Shown here: in pieces, positions 794 to 9,565 of the stretch
How the letters are laid out: each line of letters opens with the position of its first letter
Numbering within the stretch: position 1 is the first letter of the stretch
Assembly (NCBI GenBank): GCA_026398575.1
Contig: JAPLSP010000697.1
Coordinates: 1-9,565 of the forward strand
DNA from: Candidatus Sumerlaeota bacterium
GTDB taxonomy: Bacteria; Sumerlaeota; Sumerlaeia; JADFCT01
Direction of reading: 5' to 3'
Length of the DNA: 9,565 bases
The notes under the pieces: model-generated
Database searches by the model: none
The model's input: only the letters and a program-made list of their open reading frames with translations
What the model was told of the DNA's origin: nothing
Position numbers and translations under genes: made by a program

Positions 794-2995
794 AAGCGCG
801 GATCGCTTTCTGACGCTGCCGCGACGTCGGATTCCAAACGCGCTGACGGCGCGGCTTCCCCTGCTGTAGCGCCCCCTGTCGCTGCTTCTCCCGCATCAAA
901 TCCATTCGCCGTTCCTACGACGCCCCCAAACTTGCCTGCCTCGGCTTATTCCGCGGATCAGGTCTCGCATACGAATAGCGGAACGGCGCCGGATACGACC
1001 TGCGTTGTGAAGGGGGTTGTGACTTTCACGGGCGCTCCTGTGGCTGGCGCGCGTGTTTCGCTTATAAGCAGCGGCGCCTCCGCCGGCAGGTATTATAGCA
1101 TTGAGCATGATACCAAAACAGACAGCAATGGCGCGTATCAAACCATGGGCTATGCTGAATCGTCCTGTTTTCTCAGCGTGAGTTTCGAGAGAGGAACAAG
1201 CTCCTATCTTAATCGTGATAGATTCCAAACATCTGCAGGAAGAGAGAGGATCAGGGATATTGCTATCATAGGAGGAGCGGGGGCGCTCCACGGGCGTGTT
1301 TTTAATGAGGGAGAACCGTTTTCGGGAGCAGCTGTTACCATCGCCATCTTAACAGATTGGAATCGCGAACGCAAGATATACACGAAGACCAGCCAAGAAG
1401 GGGAGTTCCGATTTGATGAGCTGGAGGAGTGTTCCTACAGTTGCACCATTAATGAGGAATCCCAACCAGGGATTAGAGTTGATGGCGATACCCGGCATGA
1501 TATCGTGCTCAGAAAAAATCATACTCTCAAGATGGAGATTGTTTTCGATGACGCGCCGGATGGCAAAGAGCCGCTCGTGATTACTTCTGCCCATTTCTGG
1601 CCTAACATCAATTCCGTCGTAGTGAAAGGAAATCAGTTGGAATTCCGGGGTCTGTTCAAACGCTTATATTCATTGGAACTAACCTGCGAAACGACTGGTG
1701 GGATACCGGTCAGCGTCAAATATGCCGGCCTTTTGGATGTTGACAGTATGGATAAGGATCAGGACCTGGGCAAGATTCACATCTCGCTCAAAGGCGCGTC
1801 GCTCAAGGGAGTTATTTGCATGCCCGATGGCAAGCCTGCCCAGGGCGCATCCATCAGCTTATATCGCTACTTGTATGGGAATATTGGCGTCGTGGGGAAT
1901 TTCTCCGCAAACAAACGGGGGGAGTATGAATTCCTGGGACTGCGAGATGATAGATATCGCTCTTATGTCTTGTGGAGCGATTATTCCGATTGGACTACTA
2001 CTCTTACCAGCTTCCGCATGGCAGAATATGTTGAAGTCAAAGGCGCCACCCAGCGCGATTTCAAGTTTCCTCCCCGTCTGCCGGTCCATGATGTGACGGG
2101 GCGCATGACGCTGGGGCGCAATGAAACCCGCCTGAATCTTACGGATATCAGACGCCTTCAAATAAAGCTGCTGGGTACCGAGGAAAGTTTTTTTCCCAAT
2201 GGTCCGCTGCAAATCAGCGCCGAGGAATCGGCTTCGTATGACGGCAATGAGCCATTCCTAATTCGTGGCCGGTTCCGGGGCGAATATATTCTCTTCGCCG
2301 AGATCGGAACGCAATCTATCCGGATTCCGGGAGCCATCAGATTGGATAATCTGGAGCGCAATCAAGATCTGGGCGCCATCCGAATGCCGCCGCTGGGCGC
2401 CGTGCGCGTTCAGCTTGCATCCGCTGCTGTTCCCGACGATTCATCCATAGATACCTTGCTCAGTCTTGAATTCAAGGAAATAGGTAGAGATAACAGCTCG
2501 ACCATGAGTTCTAGTCTGCGGTTCAGCATCAACCGAAGGAAATCCGAACACGAAATTTTTCCCGTGCCGGCAGGCAGATACAATGCGTCATTCGACTGGG
2601 GCGCCTGGAGGACGGAACCTTATCAGGCGGCAGTAACTGTTGAATCCGGCAAACCGGCGACGGTGAAGTTCGCGATCCAGCCTCAGGGCTTGCTGCAAGG
2701 ATTCGCCATCATGCTCGGAAGCCCAACCATGGAAGCGAAGCCGCGCCTCATCACCCTGACGGGCTTTGGCGAGACGCGCACGATCAAGCCTCGCAACATG
2801 AACGATGATATAGAAGAGGAATACGCCGCAGGCAGGGATGTTGGACAATGGAGGCTGTTCTGGTTCCAAAATCTCAAAGAAGGAACCTGGCGGCTGAAGA
2901 TCGAGACCGACGGGTGGGAGACTTATACAAAGGATTTCGATATAAAGCCCGGCAAGGGCGGGCAGAATAGATTTTATCTTAAGCAGAATCATTGA
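2..2995 (+). CDS. Giant repeat protein with carboxypeptidase-regulatory-like (CNA-B/TTR-type) beta-sandwich modules, 5' end missing
   Basis: The frame is open to the left edge (first visible codons give QVYDYETSK), so the GTG at 29 is internal and the gene is 5'-truncated; 997 residues are visible. Nothing enzymatic is recognised. Seen: an N-terminal module (~1-264) with RGRFRGEY, RIPG, QDLG, LKEGxWRL and VKPGK motifs; a Pro/Ala/Ser linker (~270-325, nt 805-965); several modules of the type xGVVxxxGxPVAGAxVSL...TDSNGAYQ (nt ~1000-1200, 1280-1500, 1790-1980), the signature of carboxypeptidase-regulatory-like domains; then a C-terminal module (nt ~2220-2992) repeating the first one. Such domains generally form stalks or binding modules of secreted or outer-surface proteins; in several phyla they are also appended to regulators or M56-type sensors, and the missing N-terminus would decide. 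No membrane anchor or sorting signal is visible at the C-terminus. The last codons and the TGA lie inside a palindromic repeat. Family-level call is good, function unknown. Confidence 0.8.
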   Translation, partial: QVYDYETSKVDNGRFSLRGRFRGEYQIHALINEPAMRIPGILALDNLAGDQDLGEIILPVTGWLRVELSYASVPASTERPKWATLFLVPQIDAQTDAEKASTACPCINFQLDLSKPEHVLEFVPERRYDAYLTAQGWKPAPYKKQVAVQSGTTATVSFELQPQCCLTGFYHLPNGFPKGAMARSISLTEAATSETRKASLQQWSKSIHEENGKGVDSMTDRSFYFQSLKEGIWRLMIEADECETFTQDCEVKPGKWDMIQAHLKKRGSLSDAAATSDSKRADGAASPAVAPPVAASPASNPFAVPTTPPNLPASAYSADQVSHTNSGTAPDTTCVVKGVVTFTGAPVAGARVSLISSGASAGRYYSIEHDTKTDSNGAYQTMGYAESSCFLSVSFERGTSSYLNRDRFQTSAGRERIRDIAIIGGAGALHGRVFNEGEPFSGAAVTIAILTDWNRERKIYTKTSQEGEFRFDELEECSYSCTINEESQPGIRVDGDTRHDIVLRKNHTLKMEIVFDDAPDGKEPLVITSAHFWPNINSVVVKGNQLEFRGLFKRLYSLELTCETTGGIPVSVKYAGLLDVDSMDKDQDLGKIHISLKGASLKGVICMPDGKPAQGASISLYRYLYGNIGVVGNFSANKRGEYEFLGLRDDRYRSYVLWSDYSDWTTTLTSFRMAEYVEVKGATQRDFKFPPRLPVHDVTGRMTLGRNETRLNLTDIRRLQIKLLGTEESFFPNGPLQISAEESASYDGNEPFLIRGRFRGEYILFAEIGTQSIRIPGAIRLDNLERNQDLGAIRMPPLGAVRVQLASAAVPDDSSIDTLLSLEFKEIGRDNSSTMSSSLRFSINRRKSEHEIFPVPAGRYNASFDWGAWRTEPYQAAVTVESGKPATVKFAIQPQGLLQGFAIMLGSPTMEAKPRLITLTGFGETRTIKPRNMNDDIEEEYAAGRDVGQWRLFWFQNLKEGTWRLKIETDGWETYTKDFDIKPGKGGQNRFYLKQNH
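2220..2992 (+). repeat. Intragenic duplicated module, copy B
   Basis: C-terminal copy of the module at 2-793. The RGRFRGEY block is identical; the remainder is diverged but collinear (FWFQNLKEGTWRLKIE here against FYFQSLKEGIWRLMIE in copy A). A third, weaker trace of the QDLG strand motif (MDKDQDLGKI) is encoded near 1750-1780, so the unit may have been repeated more than twice. Confidence 0.8.
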
Positions 2996-3033
2996 GGGCA
3001 GAATCATAATGATTCTGCCCTCAATGATTCTGC
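2983..3033. repeat. Perfect 51-nt palindrome at the 3' end of the repeat-protein gene
   Basis: Arms 2983-3007 and 3009-3033 are exact reverse complements around a single A at 3008. Each arm holds two copies of GCAGAATCAT separated by TGAGG. It overlaps the last three sense codons and the TGA of the upstream gene. It could end transcription, but the only T-run (3050-3056) begins 16 nt past the stem, too far for a classical intrinsic terminator, and the inner part recurs at 3795-3832. It is therefore called a repeat with possible terminator activity. Confidence 0.85.
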
Positions 3034-3080
3034 CTCTGGTGTTTGGACATTTTTTTCCCGAAGGGGAACTACAATCATAG

Positions 3081-3108
3081 CCGTGGGTGAAGCGAAGCGA
3101 ACCCACGG
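3081..3108. repeat. 28-nt palindrome CCGTGGGT...ACCCACGG, left copy
   Basis: Stem 3081-3088 pairs with 3101-3108; the loop carries GAAGCGAAGCGA. The exact inverse copy lies at 3719-3746, and both are joined to a similar flank (TCATAG on this copy, CTATGATAG on the other). The loop is itself a GAAGC tandem. Confidence 0.85.
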
Positions 3109-3260
3109 TGGCGGCACGCGGAAGTATGGCCCCCGAAGGCGGCCCTGGAGTTTGGACATTTCAACCTGCTTCAGCAGGTTCCTCCTTGCCCCCGGCTTTA
3201 GCCGGCGGGGACCAGGGGCAACATAAATCTTATGAGCGCGCTTCAGCGCGGCTTCTCGAC

Positions 3261-3471
3261 GGAGGCTTCAGCCATGCCTGCTGCTTCCACCCGTATCTTC
3301 CCAGTGATCTTCATTCACCATCATCAAGCAGGCTCGATTAATGAAAAAAATAGAGCGGCATGGGACATACATGGAAGATGAATGTGATGATACGAGCGCG
3401 GAAGCAAAGTTTGGGGTATGAGTGGCTGCTTGATAACGGATGCAGGTAATTTAGCGGAAATACTGAAGCGT
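3261..3471. other. Spacer between the arms of the composite inverted repeat
   Basis: About 210 nt of more AT-rich sequence without a convincing gene, with one further small hairpin of the same type (GGCTTCAGCC, 3264-3273). The short frames crossing it run into the palindromes and have low-complexity translations. If the block is a mobile or RNA-encoding element, this would be its unique core. Confidence 0.5.
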
Positions 3472-3832
3472 GTCGAGAAGCCGCGCTGAAGCGCGCTACA
3501 AAATAGAGAGAGCATCTCAACCCACCGGCTGAAGCCGGGGGCAAGGAGGAACCTGCTGAAGCAGGTTTTGCGCACTCAAATGTTCAAACTCCAGGGCCCC
3601 CGAAGGGGGCCAACGTCGTCACGGAAGCAATTCCGATTGGAAGCGCACAAACGAAATGCAGTAGGCTGTTCAATCCATGTTGGCCCCCTCCGGGGACCGG
3701 TTTTCGCGCTTATCGTTTCCGTGGGTTCGCTTCGCTTCACCCACGGCTATGATAGTTCGCCCCCTTCGGGGGATTCAAACGTCCAAATTCCAAAGGCAGA
3801 ATCATTGAGGGCAGAATCATAATGATTCTGCC
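3472..3832. repeat. Right arm of composite inverted repeat
   Basis: Mirror image of the left arm. GTCGAGAAG (3472-3480) and the CCGCGCTGAAGCGCGC unit (3481-3496) exactly mirror 3236-3260. Then follow CCGGCTGAAGCCGG (3525-3538), AACCTGCTGAAGCAGGTT (3550-3567), AAATGTTCAAAC (3578-3589), a perfect GGCCCCC-GAA-GGGGGCC (3595-3611), GGCCCCCTCCGGGGACC (3682-3698), the exact 28-nt mirror of the CCGTGGGT palindrome (3719-3746), CCCCC-TTC-GGGGG (3760-3772), AAACGTCCAAAT (3777-3788), and the GCAGAATCAT palindrome (3795-3832). It is longer than the left arm because of about 90 extra nt between 3612 and 3718. Confidence 0.85.
3719..3746. repeat. 28-nt palindrome CCGTGGGT...ACCCACGG, right copy
   Basis: Identical in inverse orientation to 3081-3108 over all 28 bases, loop included. 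Conservation of the loop shows that the whole unit was copied rather than the stem alone being maintained. Confidence 0.85.
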
Positions 3833-3849
3833 TGTAAAGCGTTACAAGC

Positions 3850-3994
3850 CTGATGGGTCTTATCGAAGTATTCCACCAGCCCATACGCCCGCTCGTTGAG
3901 TTCCTTCATCTGCTTCATTCATCTGCTTCATCTGCTCCAGTAGCGATTGACCGCGCCCGGTGTTTAACTGGATAGTGAGCGCGCCGCAATTAAT
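3850..3994 (-). pseudogene. Frameshifted remnant of an agarase-like glycoside hydrolase C-terminus
   Basis: Read on the minus strand, this stretch encodes QSLLEQMKQM and, after a frame change, KELNERAYGLVEYFDKT. The intact gene at 8477-9565 ends LLEQMKEINERAYTLTEYFDKRP. Just upstream, INCGALTIQLN aligns loosely with NKGIVNVEFK of the intact copy. The frame is broken by tandem copies of CTTCATCTG at 3904-3934, one enlarged to 13 nt, a net gain of about 22 nt over the intact gene. After DKT the frame runs through unrelated residues to a TGA (3817-3819) inside the neighbouring palindrome. No catalytic part is present, so this is a dead 3' fragment of a second, related gene. Confidence 0.75.
3904..3934. 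repeat. Short tandem repeat causing the frameshift in the remnant
   Basis: CTTCATCTG occurs at 3904-3912 and 3926-3934, with an enlarged middle copy CTTCATTCATCTG at 3913-3925. The intact paralogue near 8533-8541 has one copy of the corresponding CTTTCATTTG-like stretch. The pattern is typical of replication slippage. Confidence 0.7.
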
Positions 3995-4074: not shown

Positions 4075-4190
4075 AACCTTTTAGCGATGCGCCGTAGGCC
4101 GCTCGATCCGAGAGCGGCGTGAGGGATTTCAGAGCTTTTGTACCGGGCCGCTCTCGGATCGAGCAGCCTACGGCGCATCGCTAAAGGGTT
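4075..4190 (+). promoter_or_regulatory. Long hairpin in the leader of the synthase-hydrolase gene
   Basis: Arms 4075-4118 and 4147-4190 are complementary at 42 of 44 positions, with a 28-nt loop (4119-4146). One mismatch would be a G-U pair in RNA. The right arm contains AAAGGG (4183-4188), the likely Shine-Dalgarno for the GTG at 4195, so the folded leader RNA would mask ribosome binding. No T-run follows, which speaks against an intrinsic terminator. It could instead be another extragenic palindrome that landed in the leader. The inverted repeat is directly visible; the regulatory role is inferred. Confidence 0.6.
4183..4188 (+). promoter_or_regulatory. Shine-Dalgarno AAAGGG for the GTG start at 4195
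   Basis: AAAGGG ends 6 nt before GTG 4195. The ATG at 4191 is in another frame. The upstream in-frame TTG at 4138 lies in the hairpin loop, has no good ribosome binding site, and would translate the right arm of the hairpin. GTG 4195 is therefore preferred. Confidence 0.5.
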
Positions 4191-4194
4191 ATGT

Positions 4195-7100
4195 GTGGAA
4201 GCGGCGGACTCGCGACTGTCACAGACGCCTGTAACGCAGCTGGCGCCTTTCGAGGGCGCGCGGCATCCGTGGGGGGGATGGCAGCGGGGATTGCTTTTGG
4301 GGGTCGTGTTGGGATTGCTCGCGCTAGCGTTTCTGGATTTCAAGGGCTTTACGATTGTTTGGAATTTCGCGACGCTTGGAATTTTTTCCATCGTCATCGG
4401 CATAAAGGTGGCCGCTGTCTTTCTCGGTCAGTTCCGAAGGTTCACCGTCAAGGCCTCGCCGGGGGAACTCGCCCGCCTCTCGGATGAATCGCTTCCTGTT
4501 TATACAGTCCTCGTTCCGCTTTACAGGGAAAAAGACATTCTCAAAGGCATGATCGCGGCGCTGGAGAGGCTGGACTATCCCGCCGGCAAGCTCGACATCC
4601 AAATCCTGCTTGAAGAAAACGACGTCGAAACGCGGCAGGAACTTGCGCGCATGGATATCCCGGCGCATATCCGCGTGGTTGTGGTCCCCGACGGGCGGCC
4701 GCGCACCAAGCCCCGCGCGTGCAATTACGGGCTGGAACGCGCGCGCGGCGAGTACCTGGTCGTTTTCGACGCCGAGGACCGCCCGGAACCGGACCAGCTG
4801 AAAAAGGCGGTGGCGGCATTCCGCAAGCTGCCGCCGCGCGTCGGCTGCCTGCAGGCGCGGCTGAATTTTTACAATGGCTTTCAAAACCTGCTGACGCGCT
4901 GGTTCACGCTCGAGTATTCGGCGTGGTTCGACCTTTACCTGCCCGGGCTGCACGCGATGCGCTCGATCATTCCGCTCGGCGGAACCTCCAACCATTTCGT
5001 CACGGACGTCCTGCGGCGCGCCGGCGGATGGGATCCCTGGAACGTCACGGAGGACTGCGATCTGGGCGTCCGCATGAGCCTCGCGCGCTCGGATATCCGC
5101 ATCCTGGATTCCACGACGTGGGAGGAGGCACCCTGCCATACGCTGCCCTGGATACGGCAGCGTTCGCGATGGATCAAGGGCTACTGGCAGACGCTCCTCG
5201 TGCATACGCGTTCGCCGCTGCGGTCGCTGGCGCGCCTGGGGCCGTGGAAGTTTTTCATGATGCTGGCGGCGGTGGGCGGACAGGTGCTGACGCTGCTGTT
5301 GATGCCGGTCTGCTGGGCGATCCTGGGAGTTTGGTTCGTCAAGCGATGGAGCCTGTTCAACCCCAAAGAGTCGTGGTCGGTCCTGCTGCTCTATGCGACG
5401 GTCCTCATGGCGCTCTTCAATGGCTACTTTATCCTGATTCATCTGATCGCGGGATTGCGGCGGCGGTATTTCCGGCTGATGCCGGCGGGGCTTTTCATGC
5501 CCGTGTACTGGCTGTTGATGAGCCTGGGGGCATGGTTCGGATTTCTACAATACTTCCGTGCGCCGTTTGCCTGGCTCAAAACCCCTCACGGCCTGTTCCT
5601 GCGAACCGCGCGCGGACGCGAACTGGCCGCCGCGCCCGCCGTTTCCGCATCCCGGCCCATGCCCGGCGTCTATCTTACGGCGATACCGTTCGCGGCCGGT
5701 ATGCTGGCCTTGATCGCCATTGCTCTGACCATTCCCCATTATGTGAAAACGCAGAAGCAAATAACGCGGGCCACGGAATATCCGTCCGGCCCATACCTGG
5801 AAGATGAGAAGATCGTGAACGCCTCCTGGTTCAGCTATTCGAACATGGCGATAGATGTTTCACTCAAACGGGGGCGCAATCCGCAAATTACGACCACGAG
5901 CCTGCTCTCATCCACGGACCCGCTTTCATCCGGCATGCTGCGATCCATGGTTTATCTCAAAGTCATGGACGGCGAATGGTACCAGTCGCTGGCGAATGAA
6001 TGTCTGCTCACGTCGGACGGGGGCATGCAGATCCGCGCGCCGCTTTTGGCGGGGCAATGGACCGGCGCCCAATCCGGCGGCGAGTGGGGGCAATGGAATC
6101 TGCGGCGCGTGCGGGCAGTGGGCATCAAAGTTTTCGGCGCCGTTGACACGATCGCGGAGATGCGCATTCGGGGCGTAACGCCCTTCGGCGCGGCCACCAG
6201 CGGCGCCTTGCAGGCCGGCGTTGTCCAGGCCGGGGAGCGCGCCACGCAATTCAAGGTCTATGAAGCGCAGTTCGAGCTGGGGCGCGAATACGAGAATCCT
6301 TTTGACGCCAAGCAGATTGATTTATGGGGCGTCATTAAAACGCCCTCGGGCAAGACGCTCACCTATCCCGCGTTCTACGCGCAGGATTATTCGCGCAAGG
6401 CAACCACGGCAAGCGAGACTCTTACGCCTCAACGCAAGCCTTACTGGGCGATCCGCTTCATGCCATCGGAGGCGGGGGCCTATCGTTGGCGTCTGAGCGG
6501 CAAGGACCATACCGGCGCCCAGCTGGAGACTTCGGCGCGAACGCTCAAGGTGGCCGCCGCGCCGGGCCGTGGATATCTGAAGCCCGACAAAAATCAGGAA
6601 TACTTTGAGTTTGAGAACGGGGAGTTCTTCTACCCCATTTCGCTGAACGTGTGCTGGCCGCGCGACTCGCGCACCATCCGCCTGCGCGGCTTTGAATACA
6701 ATAATCCCAAGGATGGCACGTTGCTGTACGGCGATTTCTTCCGCCAGATGAGCGAGGCGCGCGTCACGATGGGACGCATCTGGATGTCGCCGTGGTGGTG
6801 CGGTCTGGAATGGCGCGATGACTATCCCGGCTTCCACGGCATTGGCCGCTACAACCTGCAGAACGCCTGGCGTCTGGATTATCTCATCCAGCAAGCCGAT
6901 AAAAACAACATCATGATCGAGCTCGCGCTCAATCCCCACGGCCCCTGGACCGACCGGTGGGATAAAAATTGGGCGGAAAGCCCCTTCAAGGCCAGCAATG
7001 GCGGTTTCCTCGAGGACCATCCCCATGCCTTTACGAATCCCAAATCCATCGAACTATTCAAGCAGCGCCACCGCTACGTCGCCGCCCGCTACGGCGCTTT

Positions 7101-7944
7101 CCCAAATCTTTTCGGCTACGTCCTGGCCATCGAGGTGGACGTGATCAACGAAGACGAAACCATCCGGGCCGCCTGGCACAAGGAGATCGGCGAGGATCTG
7201 CGCCGGATGGACGGCGGCCGGCACCTGATCTCGACGGAATTCTGCAACATTCTCCCTCAGGGCGATCCGCCAACCTGGAAGCTGGACCCGATTAGCTACA
7301 CACAGGCCGCGGCCTATACCGATGACAATTTTCTCACGACTCTGCGCCAGCGCGCCATGTTGCTCAAGCCGTTCAACAAACCAAACATCATCGAGGAATA
7401 CGGCGGCACTCCCGGCGGCGCGCCGCTGAATCAGCTGGCGCTGCAAATTCACAACGCTCCCTGGATTGGATGGAATATCCCGACAGCCTCGACGCCCATG
7501 CCATGGTGGTGGAACTTTATTTTCGATTGGAAGCTGGAGCGATATTGGACCATTTTCGCCGACTATATCCAGGGCGAGAATCTAAGCGGAAAGACGTGGA
7601 AGTTCGAGGAACTCGAGGTCGAAAACGCCCCGGGATTGCGGGCGCTCGCGCGCATCGGCGAAACGCGCGCATACGCCTGGGTTTATCATCAGCGCATCAC
7701 GGAACACCGCTACGGCAATTCCGAAATCCTCAATGACAGTCCGGACGCGCGGCTGTTTGATCCGGTCCAGGATACCGCGATCACAGTCGCCGGCTTGAAA
7801 GACGGCCGCTATACGGTCGAGTTGTGGAGCACATGGATCGCCGGCAAGGTTATCAAAACTGAAGCCACTGTGACGGGCGGGAAGGTCCGCATCCCGTTCC
7901 CGATCCTGTCCCGCGACATTGCCGTGAAGATGTACCTTATGTGA
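4195..7944 (+). CDS. Fusion: cellulose-synthase-like GT2 membrane synthase + DUF5060 + GH5-like glycosidase
   Basis: 1249 residues from GTG 4195. Order: two membrane helices (~30-80); GT2 domain (~98-330) with VPLYRE (~106-111), EEND (140-143), FDAED (D192), TED (E286/D287) and QRSRW (322-326), the D,D,D,QxxRW set of processive beta-glycan synthases; helices ~353-380, 393-418 and 428-455; KTPHG near 462; a last helix ~491-513. Then an exported part: an uncharacterised beta-rich region (~530-680), a DUF5060-like Ig domain (~684-785; FELGREYENPF, WAIRFMPSEAGAYRWRL), and a GH5-like clan GH-A barrel (~793-1190) with candidate acid/base E980 (LAIEVDV) and nucleophile E1068 (IIEEYGG), followed by a C-terminal beta domain. 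The family of the GT suggests a UDP-sugar donor and a beta-linked glycan; the sugar is not determined. The hydrolase probably trims or remodels the emerging chain. Synthases and hydrolases are usually separate genes, for example BcsA and BcsZ. Start uncertain; no stop interrupts the fusion. Confidence 0.85.
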   Translation: MEAADSRLSQTPVTQLAPFEGARHPWGGWQRGLLLGVVLGLLALAFLDFKGFTIVWNFATLGIFSIVIGIKVAAVFLGQFRRFTVKASPGELARLSDESLPVYTVLVPLYREKDILKGMIAALERLDYPAGKLDIQILLEENDVETRQELARMDIPAHIRVVVVPDGRPRTKPRACNYGLERARGEYLVVFDAEDRPEPDQLKKAVAAFRKLPPRVGCLQARLNFYNGFQNLLTRWFTLEYSAWFDLYLPGLHAMRSIIPLGGTSNHFVTDVLRRAGGWDPWNVTEDCDLGVRMSLARSDIRILDSTTWEEAPCHTLPWIRQRSRWIKGYWQTLLVHTRSPLRSLARLGPWKFFMMLAAVGGQVLTLLLMPVCWAILGVWFVKRWSLFNPKESWSVLLLYATVLMALFNGYFILIHLIAGLRRRYFRLMPAGLFMPVYWLLMSLGAWFGFLQYFRAPFAWLKTPHGLFLRTARGRELAAAPAVSASRPMPGVYLTAIPFAAGMLALIAIALTIPHYVKTQKQITRATEYPSGPYLEDEKIVNASWFSYSNMAIDVSLKRGRNPQITTTSLLSSTDPLSSGMLRSMVYLKVMDGEWYQSLANECLLTSDGGMQIRAPLLAGQWTGAQSGGEWGQWNLRRVRAVGIKVFGAVDTIAEMRIRGVTPFGAATSGALQAGVVQAGERATQFKVYEAQFELGREYENPFDAKQIDLWGVIKTPSGKTLTYPAFYAQDYSRKATTASETLTPQRKPYWAIRFMPSEAGAYRWRLSGKDHTGAQLETSARTLKVAAAPGRGYLKPDKNQEYFEFENGEFFYPISLNVCWPRDSRTIRLRGFEYNNPKDGTLLYGDFFRQMSEARVTMGRIWMSPWWCGLEWRDDYPGFHGIGRYNLQNAWRLDYLIQQADKNNIMIELALNPHGPWTDRWDKNWAESPFKASNGGFLEDHPHAFTNPKSIELFKQRHRYVAARYGAFPNLFGYVLAIEVDVINEDETIRAAWHKEIGEDLRRMDGGRHLISTEFCNILPQGDPPTWKLDPISYTQAAAYTDDNFLTTLRQRAMLLKPFNKPNIIEEYGGTPGGAPLNQLALQIHNAPWIGWNIPTASTPMPWWWNFIFDWKLERYWTIFADYIQGENLSGKTWKFEELEVENAPGLRALARIGETRAYAWVYHQRITEHRYGNSEILNDSPDARLFDPVQDTAITVAGLKDGRYTVELWSTWIAGKVIKTEATVTGGKVRIPFPILSRDIAVKMYLM

Positions 7945-8476: not shown

Positions 8477-9565
8477 TTATGGCCGCTTGTCGAAATATTC
8501 TGTCAACGTATACGCCCGCTCGTTGATCTCTTTCATTTGCTCCAATAGCGGCGTGTAGGGCTTGAATTCCACGTTGACGATGCCTTTGTTGGAGTCGCGG
8601 TTCGAGGGGTCGGTCTTCAGGTTATTCGGGTCGTTGTCCTGATATTTGAACCACTGCCAGCCGATGCAATCTTTCGCTTCGAGCAGGCCCAGAACGTAAT
8701 TCTGATAAAACAGGCCGCGGTCTTTCTGCGTTTTGACGATCCAGCCGGCGCCGGTCGTGTTGGCCATGCCCGAATCCTCGCCCTTGGTGTACCACTCCGT
8801 CACCATGAACGGCTTGCCCGCCCACTCGCCCCAGTCCTTCATGAGCGCGGGATCGGGCGTCCAAGCGTTGTAGTAGTTGACCGAGACCACGTCCAGGTAA
8901 GGGCCTGCCGCTTCGAAAACCGGGCGCTGTTTCAGGACTCTGCCATTGAAACGCGGGCCAAGGTATATATGATTGGGGTCGGCCTTCTTGATCGCGGTTG
9001 CGACAACTTTGAAATAGCGCTCGGCCATGTGATTCAGGAATTTATCGCGATCCTCTTTCTTGATGTCGGCCTTGCCCGCGTTGGCGCCTTTGTGTTCGCG
9101 CAACCACTTCATCGCGGCCTGGTATCCGGCGTCGCTTTCGGGAAGGGAGAGATATTTGTCCAGCGCGTCATCGCGGAACGGCATTTCATTGTCCGAGAAA
9201 TATCCGAACAGATAGGGATCGTCTTTCAGCGCTTTGAGTTTTTCCCCCGCCTTCTCGCAATAGGTTTCGAATCCCGGATCGAACACAAAGATGCAGTCGT
9301 TCGGATAGCCCGTGTGTCCGGGCTGCTGGAAGGCGCCGCCGCGTTCTTTGCCATAGCCGCTCATCCAATTCAGGATGACAGTATAGGCCAGGGGCGCGGA
9401 GGCCTTGCGCAGGTTCTCATTGCTGCTCCAGGCGCCGGCGCTGTTGAAGCCGTTTTCGCGCAGCAGGCGCGTCGTGGCCTCGGCCCATCCAGCCACGTCC
9501 TTGAATTTATCGCGCAAGGCTTTTTGCGGGATCGGCGTGTTCTGCTCGGGCGTAATGCTGACGAT
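8477..9565 (-). CDS. Agarase-like (GH50-type, clan GH-A) glycoside hydrolase, N-terminus missing
   Basis: The frame is open to the right edge (first visible residues IVSITPEQNTPIPQ), so the TTG at 9517 is not the start. 362 residues are visible. GYFSDNEMPF supplies the candidate acid/base Glu (codon 9185-9187) after the Asn typical of clan GH-A, and FMVTEWYTKGEDSGM supplies the candidate nucleophile Glu (codon 8795-8797). YFKVVATAIKKADPNHIYLGPRF, VVSVNYYN and a late GWQWFKYQDNDPNN...KGIVNV block are in the order expected for GH50/agarase-like barrels. Such enzymes cut beta-linked galactans, but many family relatives in environmental genomes have untested substrates, so 'agarase' is a family label only. 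Secretion cannot be judged because the N-terminus is missing. Gene order gives no operon partner on the left; the next minus-strand gene is the antitoxin-like one 316 nt downstream. Confidence 0.75.
   Translation of the reverse strand: MVSITPEQNTPIPQKALRDKFKDVAGWAEATTRLLRENGFNSAGAWSSNENLRKASAPLAYTVILNWMSGYGKERGGAFQQPGHTGYPNDCIFVFDPGFETYCEKAGEKLKALKDDPYLFGYFSDNEMPFRDDALDKYLSLPESDAGYQAAMKWLREHKGANAGKADIKKEDRDKFLNHMAERYFKVVATAIKKADPNHIYLGPRFNGRVLKQRPVFEAAGPYLDVVSVNYYNAWTPDPALMKDWGEWAGKPFMVTEWYTKGEDSGMANTTGAGWIVKTQKDRGLFYQNYVLGLLEAKDCIGWQWFKYQDNDPNNLKTDPSNRDSNKGIVNVEFKPYTPLLEQMKEINERAYTLTEYFDKRP

What the first reader, a model, noticed from the sequence alone, without database searches (positions are those of the whole stretch)
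2983..3832. 850-bp mirror-ordered inverted repeat built from many small palindromes
About 280 nt on the left and 360 nt on the right are reverse complements, carrying at least seven different small palindromes in mirror order, with a 210-nt core. The mirror extends to non-palindromic connecting sequences (GTTTGGACATTT, CTCCTTGCCCCCGGC, GCTTCTCGAC), so it is a true inverted duplication and not only a cluster of self-complementary units. There is no transposase. It may be a non-autonomous mobile element, a structured RNA locus, a bidirectional insulator, or a hot spot where REP/MITE-like units accumulate.
Basis: seen in the sequence. Interest (0 to 1): 0.75.

Follow-up and report, generated by a model that had tools for sequence, protein, structure and literature searches.

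The report
Nested transposase-less hairpin mirror elements
The 850-base mirror image in this bacterial sequence is best read as two or three small gene-less mobile elements nested inside each other, each bordered by arms of three hairpins like those that, in other bacteria, often border a gene for an IS200-like transposase, an enzyme that cuts folded single-stranded DNA.

Summary
The mirror is real (local score 155, maximum 33 in 300 shuffles). The window's closest named protein relative is from Candidatus Sumerlaeota.

Single units recur in a few genomes of two other phyla. One led to a Y1 transposase gene flanked by the same kind of hairpins in mirror order. Of 44 such genes with full flanks, 31 have mirror-matched flanks; in 20 neighbourhoods 17 of 20 genes pass against 7 of 1209 control windows. 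The proteins carry the subclass 1.2 signature (59 of 60), a subclass that PMC6006769 lists without REPs.

One genome (G377) holds 17 arm copies: two gene-bearing pairs, three gene-less pairs, seven singles. The arm is hairpin 1, linker, hairpin 2, variable spacer, hairpin 3, tail. Gene-less units of this plan with small cores stand in two more genomes. The window fits the plan twice, one inside the other, and its mirror fails just in the two spacers.

I read the block as nested gene-less derivatives. Mobility in this host and the nesting are inferred; the host's genome and phylum could not be searched.

The parts
2983..3033 (.). A left: 51-nt palindrome (two 25-nt arms, 1 nt between) of GGCAGAATCAT type; it contains the stop codon (2993-2995) of ORF 29-2995
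   Evidence: (I7); related repeats in L004, L012, L013, L019, L020
3035..3052 (+). outer linker/tail TCTGGTGTTTGGACATTT, mirrored at 3773-3792 and similar to the tail of D
   Evidence: (D3, I1)
3057..3066 (.). B left: hairpin 1 of element 1 (CCCGAAGGGG)
   Evidence: (I2)
3067..3080 (+). linker of element 1 arm, ending in ATAG foot 3077-3080
   Evidence: the same linker position ends in TAGCC in several tnpA-flanking arms
3081..3108 (.). C left: hairpin 2 of element 1
   Evidence: (I2)
3109..3126 (.). variable spacer of element 1, left, 18 nt; no clear counterpart in the right arm
3128..3144 (.). D left: hairpin 3 of element 1; loop flipped relative to right arm
   Evidence: (I5)
3145..3161 (+). 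tail of element 1 arm, CTGGAGTTTGGACATTT
   Evidence: D plus tail recurs in L007 from another phylum
3163..3180 (.). E left: hairpin 1 of element 2
   Evidence: (I3)
3181..3188 (+). linker of element 2, CCTCCTTG, identical in both arms
3189..3209 (.). F left: hairpin 2 of element 2
   Evidence: (I3)
3210..3234 (.). variable spacer of element 2, left, 25 nt
3235..3252 (.). G left: hairpin 3 of element 2
   Evidence: I6
3253..3260 (+). tail of element 2, TTCTCGAC
   Evidence: (I6)
3261..3471 (.). core of element 2, 211 nt, no recognisable gene; stands where gene-bearing relatives carry a Y1 transposase gene
3472..3497 (.). tail' and G' right; GTAG on the minus strand at 3496-3499
   Evidence: I6
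3498..3520 (.). variable spacer of element 2, right, 23 nt, unrelated to the left one
3521..3567 (.). F', linker', E' right
   Evidence: I3
3578..3611 (.). tail' and D' right of element 1
   Evidence: I5
3612..3718 (.). spacer of element 1, right, 107 nt, longer than the left one and holding an extra palindrome at about 3680-3698
   Evidence: (I8)
3719..3772 (.). C', linker', B' right of element 1; ATAG on the minus strand at 3747-3750
   Evidence: (I2)
3773..3833 (.). outer linker' and A' right
   Evidence: (I1, I10)

Best explanation
The block is a nest of gene-less (non-autonomous) derivatives of a REPIN-like mobile element belonging to IS200-like Y1 transposases of subclass 1.2. Each element is a mirror pair of arms. 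Each arm is hairpin 1, a linker (ending in a TAG foot in a good part of the arms), hairpin 2, a spacer of variable sequence, hairpin 3, and a tail. Element 1 has arms B-C-D; element 2 has arms E-F-G and a 211-nt core and sits inside element 1 where its core should be; A with its linker is an outer, older or different element. Proposed mechanism: when the region is single-stranded, for example on the lagging-strand template, the mirror folds into one long branched hairpin. A Y1 transposase supplied in trans cuts and joins at the hairpin feet and moves the arms with whatever lies between them. An element whose core is very small presents its fold apex as a single-stranded target, so the next element enters at the centre and the palindromes end up in mirror order. 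Shown: the mirror, the arm anatomy, its association with transposase genes in other phyla, and gene-less pairs in the same genome as gene-bearing ones. Inferred: that the window's block belongs to this system, trans mobilisation, the cut sites, the nesting and apex targeting.
For: Mirror and its failure points. Single-strand DNA fold z -23.5 against 20 shuffles. B-C type composites in other genomes: L005, L009, L011, L014, L015, L016. L005: B-C-X, Y1_Tnp gene (PF01797, E 1.3e-26; NCBIfam IS200/IS605 77.8 bits against cut-off 55), X'-C'-B'. Mirror flanks in 31 of 44 genes with full flanks (16 of 60 fetched loci dropped for cut flanks); 17 of 20 genes against 7 of 1209 control windows, and the control hits in two of their three loci pair further hairpin units of the same plan; 17 of 20 further genes pass the same threshold (see against). 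Hairpins 8.03 against 3.03 per kb, TAG at a foot in 48 of 212 against 22 of 453. G377: 17 arms, 4 in gene-bearing pairs, 6 in three gene-less pairs with cores of 54, 95 and 96 nt, 7 single; sharp ends and a variable stretch between hairpins 2 and 3. Gene-less triple-hairpin mirror units with small cores and unmatched spacers in L097 and L102.
Against: No relative of the window's own species could be searched, so copy number in its genome, empty sites and a resident transposase are unknown. The full block or an E-F-G arm was found nowhere else: 392 genomes (only 2 first-look candidates per genome were scored, so weak evidence) and exact patterns in viral contigs (0 matches each). No nested pair was verified outside the window. 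In three further genomes (G122, G049, G024) the 14 matches of one arm family lie at the gene's own locus or in one tandem cluster at a contig end, with no dispersed gene-less pair; in G389 and G386 the G377 arm has no match. No clean empty site. 13 of 44 genes lack the signal, as do L173, L178 and L180; there, pairings between different loci, which share arm families, reach 56.5 in 11 of 400 with a 99th percentile of 131.6, which only 3 of 20 genes exceed, and L172 is a gappy alignment. Element 1's spacers differ (18 against 107). Only 15 of 31 positive arms show three or more perfect hairpins by my counter, 28 of 31 two or more.
Confidence: 0.65

Rival explanations
1. One inverted duplication of a 300-nt palindrome-rich stretch, for example by template switching at a fork, followed by divergence. 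The duplicated stretch itself would be an accumulation zone of REP-like units.
For: Linkers are mirrored as well as palindromes; A to G are all in mirror order.
Against: Spacers 3210-3234 and 3498-3520 are unrelated (shuffle level) while the blocks beside them match in 45 of 47 and 26 of 26; match differs between blocks (77 of 87 for B-C and D, 71 of 73 for E-F and G; counts). Copies in G377 and units in L097 and L102 show matched hairpins with unmatched spacers.
Confidence: 0.17
2. A cluster of ordinary REP/BIME repeats kept for a host role (transcription end, mRNA 3'-end protection, gyrase or insulator site); the order is a by-product of alternating orientations.
For: It starts at the stop codon of ORF 29-2995 and lies between that ORF and ORF 4138-7944; roles of this kind are described for REPs (introduction passage of PMC8266576 seen).
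Against: Does not explain the order A to G and back, nor the repeated three-hairpin arm. A role does not exclude the mobile origin.
Confidence: 0.1
3. A structured RNA locus.
For: Strong folding potential (computed with DNA parameters).
Against: No Rfam family at its gathering score, only weak microRNA-type matches. Any mirror folds well. Related units flank transposase genes and occur as single arms.
Confidence: 0.04
4. Assembly artefact of a metagenome contig.
For: Inverted repeats are a known trouble for assemblers (general knowledge); reads are not available here.
Against: The arms are only 86-100% alike, with different spacers, and the architecture recurs in other assemblies.
Confidence: 0.03

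Closest known systems
REPINs/BIMEs with REPtrons (TnpA_REP, RAYT)
   Same: Short palindromes, some with a tetranucleotide foot; inverted pairs; a Y1 transposase gene flanked by the same repeats; gene-less copies in the genome.
   Different: The linked transposase in L005 scores as IS200/IS605 (77.8 bits, cut-off 55) and not as RAYT (17.4 bits, cut-off 80). Each arm carries several different palindromes; feet seen are ATAG, TTAG and GTAG.
TIRtrons/TIRYTs (PMC3733652)
   Same: Y1 transposase between long terminal inverted repeats, some self-complementary ('double palindromic TIRs'), with TIR families elsewhere in some genomes (passages seen).
   Different: According to PMC6006769, 20 of 26 TIRYTs belong to subclass 2.1 and the other six to 2.2 and 2.5 (passage seen), none to 1.2. 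The passages seen do not describe arms of three different palindromes with a variable spacer, or nesting.
TnpA_Y1 subclass 1.2 (PMC6006769)
   Same: Signature Y...Q..HH in 59 of 60, WQ in 58 of 60, DHuH in 50 of 60.
   Different: [quoted passage not shown] Here it is in the phyla of a Planctomycetota and a Lentisphaera MAG and often flanked by mirror hairpin arrays.
IS200/IS605 insertion sequences
   Same: Y1 transposase and subterminal hairpins.
   Different: In IS200/IS605 the two ends are not inverted repeats of each other (recalled, from no call); here they are.

Membership tests
REP/REPIN with RAYT | palindrome with GTAG (or related) foot | tested here: inconclusive
   C has ATAG on both arms and G' has GTAG; no such foot noticed by eye at the others. 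In the related arms TAG at a foot in 48 of 212 hairpins against 22 of 453 in control.
REP/REPIN with RAYT | inverted pair | tested here: met
REP/REPIN with RAYT | linked class 2 RAYT transposase | tested here: not met
   In the relative L005 the gene fails the RAYT model (17.4 bits against 80). The window's Pfam scan covered three ORFs only and showed no transposase; the host genome could not be searched.
TIRtron/TIRYT | long inverted repeats flanking a Y1 gene | tested here: inconclusive
   Met by relatives: 31 of 44. The window has the repeats but no such gene.
TIRtron/TIRYT | GGGGWSAS motif and the TIRYT protein groups | not tested
   motif seen, not searched
Non-autonomous element of TnpA_Y1 subclass 1.2 | transposase with Y...Q..HH signature between arms of the same plan, in relatives | tested here: met
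   Signature in 59 of 60 loci (the reading frame was chosen to favour the motifs); mirror arms in 31 of 44; L005 has B and C type hairpins
Non-autonomous element of TnpA_Y1 subclass 1.2 | transposase gene in the same genome as the gene-less copy | not testable with these tools
   Shown in G377, but the window's genome is not held
MITE | many dispersed copies with discrete ends | tested here: inconclusive
   Seen for the G377 relative (17 arms), not for G122, G049, G024; not testable for the window's own genome
MITE | empty sites and target-site duplication | tested here: inconclusive
   One G377 pair is absent at the junction in the five relatives read, but without a clean empty site; a second pair gave nothing usable. 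Target duplications not tested.
Rfam RNA families | match at the gathering score | tested here: not met

The most novel reading that the evidence does not exclude
Subclass 1.2 Y1 transposases, described as lacking REPs, own a widespread class of mirror-array elements with a three-hairpin arm. These elements home to the single-stranded apex of each other's folded mirrors, so gene-less copies stack as nested Russian dolls; the window's A to G block is a record of successive insertions.
Probability: 0.28. Interest if true: 0.75.

Novelty: new variant of a known kind. Interest (0 to 1): 0.58.

Why it matters
It links a puzzling intergenic palindrome pile to a specific enzyme family, and shows that a transposase subclass described as lacking REPs (PMC6006769) is flanked by mirror-ordered hairpin arrays in 31 of the 44 loci tested here. 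If nesting at the fold apex is right, it gives a simple rule for how large composite palindromes grow in bacterial genomes and a testable substrate for single-strand transposition.

Tried and rejected
RNA family: Rfam at E up to 1 gave eight microRNA-type matches, all below gathering scores; rejected. Transposase remnant in the window: a first, badly oriented try gave scattered weak matches; the corrected one gave no profile match and no tblastn match at E 0.01.

Chance matches: the L003 match lies in the window's core part at E 0.0077 and was not read further; L008 (read) and L017 look like coding DNA by eye and were set aside, untested.

Viral collection: four exact patterns (tail of D, E plus linker, C with foot, A) gave 0 matches each.

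Empty site: tried for two gene-less G377 pairs; no clean case. A linker-against-spacer comparison over 21 of 31 arms was blurred because my rule picked hairpin 1 in several arms: linker higher in 14 of 21, mean 0.56 against 0.45. In the ten rows whose foot reads TAGC, chosen after seeing the table, linker is 90 of 120 and spacer 31 of 160; this is post hoc and carries little weight.

Limits of the flank test: the 60 loci are the best-scoring ones that the two searches returned; 16 were dropped for cut flanks. 18 of 44 loci also show direct repeats between the flanks; not explained. In one search, 19 of the 20 genes are also in the set, so that call adds a control rather than new genes. In one search, sixteen of the 20 further genes come from two genomes.
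Full report
What is there. The window's 2983-3833 holds a 278-nt left arm and a 362-nt right arm that are reverse complements in five blocks, with a 211-nt core at 3261-3471. Ungapped identity by block is 55/63, 47/52, 30/35, 45/47 and 26/26. The local score is 155, against a maximum of 33 in 300 shuffles, and the single DNA strand folds at -297 kcal/mol against a mean of -139 for 20 shuffles. The order is A B C D E F G, core, G' F' E' D' C' B' A'. Between the blocks the mirror clearly fails at two inner intervals: after C (18 nt against 107 nt) and after F (25 nt against 23 nt, no better than shuffles).

Host. The 1268-aa neighbour (glycosyltransferase 2 plus DUF5060) is 68% identical to a Candidatus Sumerlaeota protein; of its four closest listed relatives three bear the name Sumerlaeota or Sumerlaeia and one has no name. 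No genome is held for the window, and the one scan of genome contigs reached only a Lentisphaera and a Planctomycetota MAG.

Units elsewhere. BLAST of the block in 198 genomes of the Planctomycetota MAG's phylum and 194 of the Lentisphaera MAG's phylum found matches in 6 and 7 genomes at E 0.001. Only two first-look candidates per genome were scored, so these are lower bounds. By reading, the matches fall into A-type repeats (L004, L012, L013, L019, L020), B-C composites (L005, L009, L011, L014, L015, L016, L021), and D plus its tail (L007). L006 shows a GCTGAAGC hairpin in the same hairpin-linker-hairpin setting. L008 and L017 look like coding DNA and were set aside. L009 is itself a mirror-ordered array with other letters (two inverted pairs, 80% and 84%).

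The transposase. In L005 the array B-C-X stands before, and X'-C'-B' after, a Y1_Tnp gene. 43 of 198 and 37 of 194 genomes carry that protein at E 1e-10 or better. Of 60 fetched loci, 59 have the Y...Q..HH signature that PMC6006769 gives for subclass 1.2 (sections 17 and 18 read). That paper's table reports no REP for this subclass.

Flanks. For the 44 loci with full flanks, the upstream 650 nt matches the reverse complement of the downstream 650 nt above the 99th percentile (56.5) of 600 mismatched pairings in 31. In 20 neighbourhoods, 17 of 20 genes but 7 of 1209 control windows pass. The seven control hits lie in three loci. In L097 and L102 they pair whole hairpin units of the same plan; in L086 they are a weaker, shorter pair. 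Twenty further genes, sixteen of them from two genomes, gave 17 of 20 at the same threshold; loci of one genome share arm families there, so mismatched pairings also reach it in 11 of 400, and their 99th percentile is 131.6, exceeded by 3 of 20. Hairpins are 2.6 times denser next to these genes than in control, and the excess fades within about 500 nt.

Gene-less copies. In G377, one arm family has 17 copies: two pairs around a transposase gene, three inverted pairs around 54, 95 and 96 nt without a gene, and seven single arms, two of them partial. The alignment gives a unit of about 92 nt with sharp ends; it is conserved except for roughly 20-23 nt between hairpins 2 and 3. The other two genomes in that search had no match. 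By eye, a gene-less pair of the same family also stands in G394 (L152). Against generality, in G122, G049 and G024 the 14 matches of another arm family lie at the gene's locus or in one tandem cluster at a contig end. L097 (14262-14451) and L102 (14021-14220) hold gene-less mirror units with three hairpins per arm, matched hairpins and unmatched spacers, and cores of about 10 to 20 nt; by eye they recur in tandem nearby.

Reading of the window. B-linker-C-spacer-D-tail and E-linker-F-spacer-G-tail both match this arm, and the mirror fails just where the G377 arms vary and where the L097 and L102 units fail. Element 2 lies directly inside the tails of element 1 (1 nt on the left, 10 nt on the right), where L097 and L102 have a small core. 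I therefore read the block as nested gene-less elements, the inner pair (71 of 73 identical positions) being younger than the outer one (77 of 87). A and the TTTGGAC linker form a further outer layer whose type I cannot fix. The nesting is an inference; no second nested case was verified.

Function. The most likely activity is passive mobility by a Y1 transposase acting on the folded single strand. Side effects on the ends of transcripts are possible, since A contains the stop codon of ORF 29-2995, but were not tested.

Literature. Searches. Papers seen: PMC6006769 (abstract, outline, sections 13, 17, 18, 27 and passages), PMC3733652 (passages), PMC8266576 (passages); the others only as search listings. 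In what I saw there is no description of mirror arrays at subclass 1.2 genes; figures, supplements and papers outside the held library were not seen.

Noticed in passing
window 4075-4190: A second, smaller mirror: two 44-nt arms, 95% complementary, 28 nt apart (I4), each with GTAG at the foot of a short hairpin (GTAG at 4094-4097, CTAC at 4168-4171). It looks like a classical GTAG REP inverted pair (REPIN).
   Followed up: partly
window 3859-3917: A 59-nt copy (78%) of 8486-8544, the 3' end of the minus-strand ORF 8477-9517, suggesting that a decayed duplicate of that gene once stood beside the block.
   Followed up: no
window 2983-2995: The stop codon of ORF 29-2995 lies inside palindrome A, so the repeat forms the end of that gene.
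   Followed up: no
L004, L012, L013, L019, L020: The GGCAGAATCATTGAGGGCAGAATCAT-type repeat recurs in three genomes of two other phyla; by eye, in L013 and L019 it forms an inverted pair about 100 nt apart, like a small MITE of its own.
   Followed up: partly
L078, L073, L069, L079 and others (flanks of tnpA genes): 18 of 44 transposase genes have long direct repeats on both sides, as if the hairpin array had been amplified in tandem together with the gene.
   Followed up: partly
L097:14240-15470 and L102:14010-15740: Gene-less mirror triple-hairpin units with small cores, repeated in tandem several times.
   Followed up: partly
L011:1525-1660: Tandem array of a short unit at the end of a B-C composite, running to the end of the locus.
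   Followed up: no
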